A DNA stretch of 64,000 nt from Candidatus Nanopelagicaceae bacterium (GTDB taxonomy: Bacteria; Actinomycetota; Actinomycetes; Nanopelagicales; Nanopelagicaceae): positions 37,470-101,469 of the forward strand of contig CANGLK010000001.1 in the NCBI GenBank assembly GCA_947454735.1. Reading direction: 5' to 3'. The position numbers were made by a program, and so were the translations under genes. This document shows, in pieces, positions 21,963 to 30,267 of this stretch. The notes under the pieces were generated by a model that made no database searches, was not told where the DNA came from, and saw nothing but the letters and a program-made list of their open reading frames with translations. Numbering within the stretch: position 1 is the first letter of the stretch; each line of letters starts with the position of its first letter.

Positions 21963-24594
<2,632 letters not shown>

Positions 24595-24621: not shown

Positions 24622-24906
24622 TTAGTTCTGATAATCGGGTTGTGTATCTTTGACTGGCTTCTTCTCTCCATTAACGAGCTCTTCAATGCTGATAACACTA
24701 ATGAGCTTGTCCAATTGAGCGATAACTTGCTCGAGAGAGTGGCCTTCTAGGTTGACCTGGATGACCATCTTCGAAACTTCTGGGTTTGTTGTGGGACCGA
24801 CAACCAAGGTGTCGATGTTGTATGCGCGACGAGCAAAGAGCCCTGAAACACGTGCGAGTACGCCTGGTTCGTTTTCAACGAGAACTTCAAGTGTGTGAAT
24901 AGACAT
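24622..24906 (-). CDS. ilvN: Acetolactate synthase small subunit, short form (94 aa, ACT domain only)
   Basis: HTLEVLVENEPGVLARVSGLFARRAYNIDTLVVGPTTNPEVSKMVIQV, then a short unrelated tail KKPVKDTQPDYQN. Confidence 0.93.
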   Translation of the reverse strand: MSIHTLEVLVENEPGVLARVSGLFARRAYNIDTLVVGPTTNPEVSKMVIQVNLEGHSLEQVIAQLDKLISVISIEELVNGEKKPVKDTQPDYQN

Positions 24907-26672
24907 TAGAGCTCCTGTGAATCCCAGTCAGGCGCAGTAGCGCGGGCGATCATGATTTCATCGTTCGATGTTCCAGCAGCAACCATCGGCCAGACCATCG
25001 CATCGCGATGCACACGGAAATCAACAACAACCGGTTGATCGTTAATAGACATCGCCTTCTCGATAGTTGCATCGAGATCTTCTGGACGTTCGCATGAAAG
25101 TCCCACACAACCCATCGCTTCTGCAAGCATTGGGAAATTTGGAACGCGCTTTGATTCAAGTGAAGTATTTGAGTAACGACCTTCATAGAACAAGGTCTGC
25201 CATTGGCGAACCATTCCGAGGGATTCGTTATTGATAATCGCAACCTTGATAGGAATATTATTAAGAGCACATGTGACAAGCTCTTGATTTGTCATCTGGA
25301 AACATCCATCACCATCAATTGCCCAGACAGTTGAATCAGGTGCGCCAACCTTTGCGCCCATTGCAGCAGGAAGGCCGTAACCCATTGTTCCTGCGCCACC
25401 TGAGTTAAGCCATGTGCGTGGATGTTCGTAAGAGATAAATTGTGATGCCCACATCTGATGCTGGCCAACGCCAGATGTAAAGATGGTGTCAGTGCCAGAG
25501 ATCTGACCGATGCGCTCGATTACCGCCTGTGGTGAGAGTGAACCATCATCAGGAAGTGTGTAACCCACTGGATATGAGCTCTTCAACTTCAAAATCGATG
25601 CATTCCATGGCGTTAAATCAGGATGGTTCTTGGCAAGAGCAGCCTTCAGCGCAGGGATTAACGCAGAGATGGTCTCGCGGAGGTCTCCGATAACAGGAAC
25701 ATCGGCAAATTTATTCTTATTGATCTCTGCAGGGTCGATATCTGCGTGAATTACCTTTGCATTGACTGCAAATGAAGAGAGCTTGCCGGTCACGCGATCA
25801 TCAAAGCGCGCACCTAGGGTGATGAGAAGGTCTGCCTTTTGAAGTGAAGTAACAGCGGCAACACTTCCGTGCATACCTGGCATACCAAGATGCAATGGAT
25901 GTGAATCAGGGAATGCTCCACGTGCCATCAACGTTGTCACAACTGGAGCGCCAAGAAGTTCAACTAATTGTGCAAGCTCTTTAGATGCATTGGCCTTGAT
26001 AACTCCCCCACCAACGTAGAAGACAGGCTTCTTCGATTGCGCAATCAGCGCTGCTGCATCTGCGATTGATTGGTTATCTGGAGTAATACGTGGGTTGTAG
26101 CCGGCGAGTTCAATCTTTGATGGCCAATTGAAAGTTGTCTGCGCTTGAAGCGCATCCTTTGCAATATCGACAAGTACGGGACCTGGACGACCTGTTGTCG
26201 CGATATGGAAAGCCTGTGCGATAGCTCCAGGAATATCTTCTGCTTTTGTAACGAGGAAGTTGTGCTTTGTAAAAGGCATTGTGATGCCGCGAATATCTGC
26301 CTCTTGAAAAGCATCTGTTCCGATTGCAGCCGATGGAACTTGACCCGTAATCGCAACGAGTGGAACAGAGTCCATTCCTGCATCCATCAACGGCGTGACT
26401 AGATTTGTTGCACCAGGACCTGATGTTGCAATACAGACACCTGCGCGACCAGTTACCTGGGCATAGCCAGTTGCAGCATGTCCTGCGCCTTGTTCATGGC
26501 GAACCAAGATGTGGCGAATTGTTGAATCAAAGATCGGATCATAGGCAGGAAGAATGGCGCCGCCGGGCAGACCGAACATCACATCTACATTTGCTGCTTC
26601 AAGGCTTTTCACCAATGAAGTAGCTCCGTTCATTGCTGTGCCGTTCGCTGTTGGAACGTGTTGTGTGGCCAT
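24906..26672 (-). CDS. ilvB: Acetolactate synthase large subunit
   Basis: [20 protein letters not shown]...[34 protein letters not shown]; ThDP motif [12 protein letters not shown]. Confidence 0.97.
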
Positions 26673-26729
26673 CTTCTTGCTCCTTTCTATCTCGATCGAT
26701 ATTTACAAAAGCTTTGTTAAATGAAAAAA

Positions 26730-26747
26730 CCCTCAGATATCTGAGGG
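26730..26747 (-). terminator. Intrinsic terminator in the ilvB leader (attenuator)
   Basis: Self-complementary CCCTCAGATATCTGAGGG followed on the minus strand by TTTTTT (26724-26729), upstream of the ilvB start. Confidence 0.85.
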
Positions 26748-26770
26748 CGCGCATGCTGTGAGGGCATGCG

Positions 26771-26815
26771 CTATCGAATCACCACCACTGATGAAGAAAC
26801 GATTGTTGAACGCAT
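26771..26815 (-). CDS. ilvB-operon leader peptide MRSTIVSSSVVVIR (14 aa)
   Basis: Minus strand ATG CGT TCA ACA ATC GTT TCT TCA TCA GTG GTG GTG ATT CGA TAG; Val/Ile-rich, followed by competing hairpins and a terminator. Confidence 0.85.
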   Translation of the reverse strand: MRSTIVSSSVVVIR

Positions 26816-26821
26816 GCCCGT

Positions 26822-26851
26822 ATTCTCGCGTAGAGCGAGCGCATGAGTCAA
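26822..26851 (-). promoter_or_regulatory. Putative sigma-A promoter of the ilvB leader (TTGACT-N18-GAGAAT)
   Basis: -35 TTGACT (complement 26846-26851), -10 GAGAAT (complement 26822-26827), ATG 6 nt downstream, suggesting a leaderless leader peptide. Confidence 0.55.
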
Positions 26852-26854
26852 GGG

Positions 26855-26893
26855 TTGAGATGCACGTCTCAATTATTGAAACGTAAGTCTCAT
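26855..26893. promoter_or_regulatory. Two operator-like palindromes TTGARA-N6-TCTCAW, 21 bp apart
   Basis: TTGAGATGCACGTCTCAA (26855-26872) and TTGAAACGTAAGTCTCAT (26876-26893), immediately upstream of the -35. Confidence 0.55.
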
Positions 26894-30233: not shown

Positions 30234-30267
30234 AAAAAACCCGCCGATGAATGTCGGCGGGTTTTTT
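30234..30267. terminator. Bidirectional intrinsic terminator between the MFS gene and gatB
   Basis: AAAAAACCCGCCGATGAATGTCGGCGGGTTTTTT, 8-bp stem with A and T tracts. Confidence 0.92.

What the first reader, a model, noticed from the sequence alone, without database searches (positions are those of the whole stretch)
26724..26820. Ribosome-mediated attenuator with VVVI leader peptide upstream of ilvB
The minus strand encodes MRSTIVSSSVVVIR* (GTG GTG GTG ATT as control codons). GGGCATGCG over the leader start (26811-26819) is perfectly complementary to CGCATGCCC after the stop (26762-26770). That segment can instead pair GCATGC/GCATGC (26764-26769 with 26751-26756). The terminator CCCTCAGATATCTGAGGG plus T6 follows. 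Attenuation of ilv operons by leader translation is established in enterobacteria and described for actinobacterial ilvB. This 14-aa instance is not in the ORF track.
Basis: partly seen in the sequence, partly recalled or inferred. Interest (0 to 1): 0.72.

Follow-up and report, generated by a model that had tools for sequence, protein, structure and literature searches.

The report
Valine-sensing switch before ilvB gene
A freshwater actinobacterium carries, in front of its valine/isoleucine-making genes, a tiny valine-rich gene and two back-to-back RNA hairpins that very probably switch those genes on when valine runs short; such switches are already known in related bacteria, but the two hairpins do not compete for the same bases as the textbook mechanism requires, so how they work is still open.

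Summary
MRSTIVSSSVVVIR* (26815-26771, minus) sits 99 nt upstream of ilvB and is followed by two hairpins and an intrinsic terminator. The genome belongs to the acI/Nanopelagicales freshwater actinobacteria. The same device lies upstream of ilvB in all readable same-genus relatives, in 74/74 distinct leaders compared, and in one genome from each of 20 further families of the class. It occurs once in this genome. So this is a member of the known actinobacterial ilvB leader-peptide attenuators, in an unreported lineage.

The -35 box lies 35-37 nt before the leader start in nearly every leader, so the leader mRNA is very probably leaderless and starts at the ATG. The GGGC of "region 1" is then not transcribed, and that pairing is not conserved. 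The second pairing is a conserved, covarying 8-bp hairpin (P1, 26771-26749). It abuts the terminator hairpin (P2) without sharing bases. Folding with a masking ribosome makes P1 depend strongly on ribosome position, but P2 forms in every state. No mutually exclusive antiterminator was found. How P1 relieves termination is unproven.

The parts
26856..26871 (-). Palindrome TGAGACGTGCATCTCA directly upstream of the -35 box; likely regulator site
   Evidence: only occurrence in the genome; TGAGA-n-TCTCA form in 39 Nanopelagicales leaders
26846..26851 (-). -35 box TTGACT
   Evidence: first base 35-37 nt before the leader start in 78 of 80 leaders
26822..26827 (-). -10 box GAGAAT, ending 6 nt before ATG; inferred transcript start at 26815
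   Evidence: GAGAAT/GACAAT/GATAAT at this position in 42 of 46 Nanopelagicales leaders
26771..26815 (-). Leaderless leader ORF MRSTIVSSSVVVIR*
   Evidence: homologous ORFs in 74 distinct leaders
26777..26788 (-). Control codons GTG GTG GTG ATT (Val-Val-Val-Ile)
   Evidence: GTG is 10% of Val codons in neighbouring genes but about 83% of Val control codons in Nanopelagicales
26749..26771 (-). Hairpin P1: GCGCATGC (26771-26764), loop CCTCACA, GCATGCGC (26756-26749); begins with the G of the stop codon
   Evidence: folding; covariation (two pairs with double changes, 7 cells, 0/500 shuffles); position fixed in 74/74 leaders
26730..26747 (-). Hairpin P2, terminator stem CCCTCAG-ATAT-CTGAGGG, abutting P1 (26748 can pair G-U with 26729)
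   Evidence: arms invariant in alignment A2; only such element in the genome
26724..26729 (-). U-tract of the intrinsic terminator
   Evidence: conserved in relatives
24906..26672 (-). ilvB, acetolactate synthase large subunit; Shine-Dalgarno AAAGGAG at 26686-26680
24622..24906 (-). ilvN-like small subunit, 94 aa
   Evidence: position and translation; no family search run
23548..24582 (-). ilvC, ketol-acid reductoisomerase

Best explanation
This is the Nanopelagicales (acI) version of the actinobacterial ilvB leader-peptide attenuator. Transcription starts at the A of the leader ATG and ribosomes start directly on that 5' end. The three GTG codons, read by the single tRNA-Val(UAC), and the ATT codon sense charged Val/Ile-tRNA. 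With amino acids in supply the ribosome runs to the stop codon at the foot of hairpin P1, keeps P1 open, and the terminator hairpin P2 ends transcription before ilvB. When Val is short the ribosome waits on the first GTG codons, just far enough upstream for P1 to fold. P1 folded directly against P2 then lowers termination, and ilvBNC is transcribed. Shown by sequence and comparison: the ORF, codons, P1, P2, spacing and conservation. Shown by calculation: P1 depends on ribosome position. Inferred: transcript start, codon sensing in this organism, and above all that P1 reduces termination. Since P1 and P2 share no bases, that last step must be kinetic or steric, or use a pairing that folding programs miss.
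For: ORF, hairpins, operon. Conservation: same-genus upstream regions, named Nanopelagicales and other Actinomycetes, 140/296 genomes of the order with a strict pattern, one locus per genome apart from a few split or mixed assemblies, no reversed-pattern control hits, 20/20 families in an independent one-per-family sample. Leaderless: -35 at 35-37 nt; RNA-seq start mapping reports leaderless MRTRILVLGKRVG* in S. lividans (PMC8079986), the same peptide as in L077/L097/L109/L118 here; the C. glutamicum start is 1 nt from the leader start codon (PMC11857589). Two abutting hairpins in 74/74 (39). P1 covariation (52; cis better than trans, 43). Ribosome masking: P(P1) 0.91/0.80/0.45/0.01 with the A site at first/second/last BCAA codon/stop. 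Codon bias (60) with only tRNA-Val GAC and UAC found in a closed relative genome. Function of homologous leaders: C. glutamicum VVV->AAA loses valine response and start-codon loss cuts expression by 80%; M. tuberculosis LVVI->AAAA gives low unresponsive expression (PMC13236596).
Against: P2 has probability >=0.9 in every ribosome state in all 40 Nanopelagicales leaders, so folding alone gives no switch, and coaxial stacking of P1 on P2 might even help termination. In S. coelicolor, changing the ilvB leader codons was reported not to affect regulation (as cited in PMC1262725). No expression data exist for this organism. The masking model uses a fixed 27-nt footprint and ignores kinetics and pseudoknots.
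Confidence: 0.78

Rival explanations
1. Classical three-structure attenuator: leader start pairs with region 2, region 2 with region 3 as antiterminator, region 3 with region 4 as terminator.
For: Exact 9-nt complementarity in this genome and the global MFE of the longer stretch. In C. glutamicum the corresponding hairpin is reported to overlap the terminator by GCC (PMC11857589).
Against: Region 1 is mostly upstream of the inferred start and not conserved. P1 shares no base with P2 in the window's leader and the P1-P2 gap is 0-3 nt in all 74 leaders. No leader segment pairs better in cis than in trans with either P2 arm.
Confidence: 0.08
2. Mutually exclusive antitermination through a pairing that MFE folding misses, such as the P1 loop with the 3' arm of P2 (proposed for Corynebacterium) or a 1-3 bp tug at the P1/P2 junction.
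For: The loop region CCCTCA in this genome repeats the P2 5' arm; some near relatives have CCTTCA there; a few relatives share one C between P1 and P2 (e.g. GCACGCGCCCTCAG). Narunsky 2023 and Ryabchenko 2025 propose such models.
Against: P1 loop x P2 3' arm is no better in cis than in trans; the second clade has no such loop motif. In C. glutamicum the measured antiterminator contribution was -1.5 against -6.8 kcal/mol calculated.
Confidence: 0.3
3. P1 is only a pause or spacing hairpin that synchronises RNA polymerase with the leader ribosome; the switch lies in coupling or ribosome release, not in antitermination by P1.
For: P1 immediately precedes P2 and includes or follows the stop codon, a sensible place for a pause hairpin; P2 forms in every state.
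Against: P1 access is graded by control-codon position and its distance to the control codons is fixed while the stop codon wanders 0-27 nt, as expected of a sensor element.
Confidence: 0.2
4. P2 is simply the terminator of ilvD and the short ORF is accidental.
For: ilvD lies directly upstream in the window.
Against: The same promoter, ORF and hairpins precede ilvB in Streptomyces, Blastococcus, Jiangella and others whose sequence directly upstream shows no ilvD C-terminus; BCAA codons precede P1 in every leader.
Confidence: 0.02

Closest known systems
ilvL leader of Streptomyces lividans/coelicolor (MRTRILVLGKRVG*)
   Same: Leaderless BCAA leader ORF upstream of ilvBNC/ilvBHC, fixed -35 spacing, P1 then abutting intrinsic terminator; the identical peptide occurs in loci read here
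   Different: Control codons ATT CTC GTA CTT rather than GTG GTG GTG ATT; much larger P1; codon mutations reported without effect in S. coelicolor
ilvB-II motif / ilvBNC attenuator of Corynebacterium
   Same: Leaderless leader ORF with VVV, hairpin P1, terminator P2, ilvBNC downstream; codon dependence shown experimentally
   Different: Reported H1 anti-antiterminator and GCC overlap of H2 with the terminator; neither is found in the window
ilvB1 attenuator of Mycobacterium tuberculosis (LVVI)
   Same: BCAA-codon uORF, short terminated transcript, starvation read-through
E. coli/Salmonella trp, his and ilv attenuators
   Same: Ribosome position on control codons decides an RNA structure before a terminator
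   Different: There the 2:3 hairpin shares strand 3 with the terminator; here P1 and P2 share nothing, and the leader ORF is leaderless

Membership tests
Actinobacterial ilvB leader-peptide attenuator | Short ORF with BCAA codon run upstream of ilvB | tested here: met
Actinobacterial ilvB leader-peptide attenuator | Intrinsic terminator between leader and ilvB | tested here: met
Actinobacterial ilvB leader-peptide attenuator | Leaderless leader ORF (start at or 1 nt from the start codon) | tested here: met
   Promoter spacing only; the start is not mapped in this organism
Actinobacterial ilvB leader-peptide attenuator | Premature transcript and Val-dependent read-through | not testable with these tools
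   needs RNA ends or a reporter
Classical (trp-type) ribosome-mediated attenuator | Hairpin whose formation depends on ribosome position at control codons versus stop | tested here: met
   P(P1) 0.91 at first control codon, 0.01 at stop
Classical (trp-type) ribosome-mediated attenuator | Antiterminator mutually exclusive with the terminator | tested here: not met
   no shared bases, P2 >=0.9 in all states; pseudoknots and kinetics not covered
Classical (trp-type) ribosome-mediated attenuator | 1:2 protector pairing by the leader start | tested here: not met
ilvB-II motif (Corynebacterium) | P1 loop able to pair with the 3' side of P2 | tested here: inconclusive
   possible in the window and some near relatives, no cis advantage overall
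Rfam families (including leader and riboswitch families) | Match to a curated covariance model | tested here: not met
   no family reaches its gathering score at the leader

The most novel reading that the evidence does not exclude
The ilvB attenuator of the whole class Actinomycetes works without a mutually exclusive antiterminator: a leaderless ORF gates a hairpin that abuts the terminator base to base, and folding of that neighbour, not competition for bases, weakens termination.
Probability: 0.35. Interest if true: 0.72.

Novelty: new member of a known kind. Interest (0 to 1): 0.42.

Why it matters
It adds the abundant, streamlined acI freshwater bacteria to the known users of ilvB attenuation. 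The comparison also sharpens an open question: the leaders keep two hairpins abutting with almost no gap across the class, yet no base competition with the terminator could be found. That fits awkwardly with textbook attenuation, with the weak antiterminator effect measured in C. glutamicum and with the old negative codon-swap result in S. coelicolor. The hypothesis is testable with spacer and compensatory mutants.

Tried and rejected
Region 1 (GGGCATGCG) as protector: not conserved, mostly outside the inferred transcript. Control codons pairing with either terminator arm, P1 loop with the P2 3' arm, and whole leader with P2 arms: no cis-over-trans advantage; power is limited because P2 and the codons hardly vary. 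GGAG in TTGGAGAAT as a Shine-Dalgarno site: rejected, because the position is GACAAT/GATAAT/AATAAT in relatives. P2 as ilvD terminator: rejected. Rfam: only sub-threshold matches. MAFFT misaligned the P1 3' arm between the two clades in A1, so covariation was counted within clades; A4 (second clade) gave only weak support, 24/500 shuffles. P1 arms were taken from each sequence's own fold, so the pairing percentages are partly circular. About 31% of shuffled P1 regions also give an end-to-end hairpin, so the 74/74 count should be judged against that. The NdgR/LtbR motif from the literature does not match the TGAGA palindrome. The first genome-contig scan failed and was repeated.

Full report
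What is there. On the minus strand, 99 nt before ilvB, the sequence reads promoter - short ORF - hairpin P1 - terminator hairpin P2 - U6 - Shine-Dalgarno - ilvB. Every string in the finding is present at its coordinates. The operon is ilvB-ilvN-ilvC followed by serA, leuB and ilvE, with ilvD upstream (ilvN is assigned from its translation and position only). The stretch folds 5 sd better than shuffles and carries one of two terminator-like sites in 400 bp where 0.3 are expected. Rfam has no model for it.

Whose genome. The nearest named IlvB relatives are acI/Nanopelagicales records, including strain IMCC26103, SCGC AAA028-A23 and Candidatus Nanopelagicaceae bins.

Conservation. Upstream regions of ilvB in the same genus, in other Nanopelagicales, and in Jiangella, Nocardioides, Streptomyces, Frankia and Blastococcus carry the same order of parts. 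A strict pattern (GTGGTGATT ... CCCTCAG ... CTGRGGGTTTT) hits 140 of 296 genomes of the order, at one locus per genome apart from a few split or mixed assemblies, with no hit for the reversed control. An independent sample, one genome for each of 20 other families of the class, has the leader in 20 of 20; two of these (L122, L124) were recognised by eye because the parser's codon-run rule missed them. In this genome the P2 element and the upstream palindrome each occur once.

Leaderless leader. The first base of the -35 TTGAC lies 35 (26), 36 (41), 37 (11) or 38 (1) nt upstream of the leader start codon in 79 of 80 leaders, and the hexamer ending 6 nt before the start is GAGAAT, GACAAT or GATAAT in 42 of 46 Nanopelagicales leaders. 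That places +1 on the start codon. RNA-seq start mapping in S. lividans reports MRTRILVLGKRVG* as leaderless (PMC8079986), the same peptide as in several Streptomyces loci read here, and the C. glutamicum start is one nucleotide from the leader start codon (PMC11857589).

Two abutting hairpins. All 74 distinct leaders fold downstream of the BCAA codons into exactly two hairpins. P1 begins 0-7 nt (mostly 4-5) after the last control codon and ends 0-3 nt (mostly 0) before P2, while the stop codon wanders from 0 to 27 nt after the control codons. P1 regions are about 3.9 sd more stable than shuffles (93 of 7400 shuffles as stable). P1 covaries in the window's own clade: G-C to A-U double changes at two pairs, 7 cells, 0 of 500 shuffles; in a second clade support is weak. 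P2 arms are invariant in the window's clade, so P2 itself carries no covariation signal there.

Which pairings are real. Duplex energies were compared within a genome and between mismatched genomes. Only P1 arm x P1 arm and P2 arm x P2 arm are better in cis.

Ribosome positions. With a 27-nt ribosome mask, P1 has mean probability 0.91 with the A site on the first control codon, 0.80 on the second, 0.45 on the last and 0.01 at the stop (40 Nanopelagicales leaders; 0.95/0.92/0.56/0.03 in 34 others). P2 stays at or above 0.9 in every Nanopelagicales state (examples). So the anatomy makes P1 a good sensor of ribosome position, but equilibrium folding gives no P1-against-P2 competition.

Codon choice. 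Val control codons are GTG or GTA in 114 of 121 cases in Nanopelagicales, against about 27% in ten genes around the window, where GTG is the rarest Val codon at 10%; in the other Actinomycetes GTA dominates. In a closed genome of the same genus just two tRNA-Val genes were found, GAC and UAC, so both codons would be read by tRNA-Val(UAC). This fits selective-charging theory for attenuator codons (PMC1183508). The leaders are related, so the binomial value is not a proper probability.

How it probably works. Shown: ORF, codons, spacing, P1, P2 and their conservation. Calculated: P1 opens and closes with ribosome position. Taken from homologous leaders: codon dependence and starvation read-through (C. 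glutamicum; M. tuberculosis). Inferred: in this organism a ribosome waiting at the GTG codons lets P1 fold and P1 reduces termination at P2. The last step has no structural explanation yet. The published models postulate a small overlap or a loop pairing, and in C. glutamicum the measured antiterminator effect was far below the calculated one. In S. coelicolor codon changes were reported without effect (cited in PMC1262725).

Verdict. The class-wide abutting, non-competing hairpins are the part worth following.

Noticed in passing
window 26856-26871 (minus), and the same place in relatives: A conserved 16-bp palindrome (TGAGAT-n4-ATCTCA in acI; TGAGAC-n4-GTCCCA-like in Streptomyces) lies just upstream of the -35 box, looks like a regulator site, and is the only one in the genome. 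It does not match the published NdgR/LtbR motif.
   Followed up: partly
L203 69-144 (own genome, contig C13) and L198 56-131 (relative G280): A tRNA gene to which ARAGORN assigns a four-base anticodon (gacg / ggcg), apparently with an enlarged anticodon loop; it scores well above the Rfam tRNA cut-off in both genomes.
   Followed up: partly
window 24622-24906 (minus): The putative IlvN is only 94 aa, about the size of an ACT domain alone.
   Followed up: no
L134 (relative G280): ARAGORN calls a possible permuted tmRNA overlapping tRNA-Ala; probably spurious.
   Followed up: no
window 30235-30265: Strong GC-rich hairpin with T- and A-runs between the convergent MFS transporter and gatB-like genes, probably a bidirectional terminator; gives weak chance Rfam hits such as Thr_leader.
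   Followed up: no
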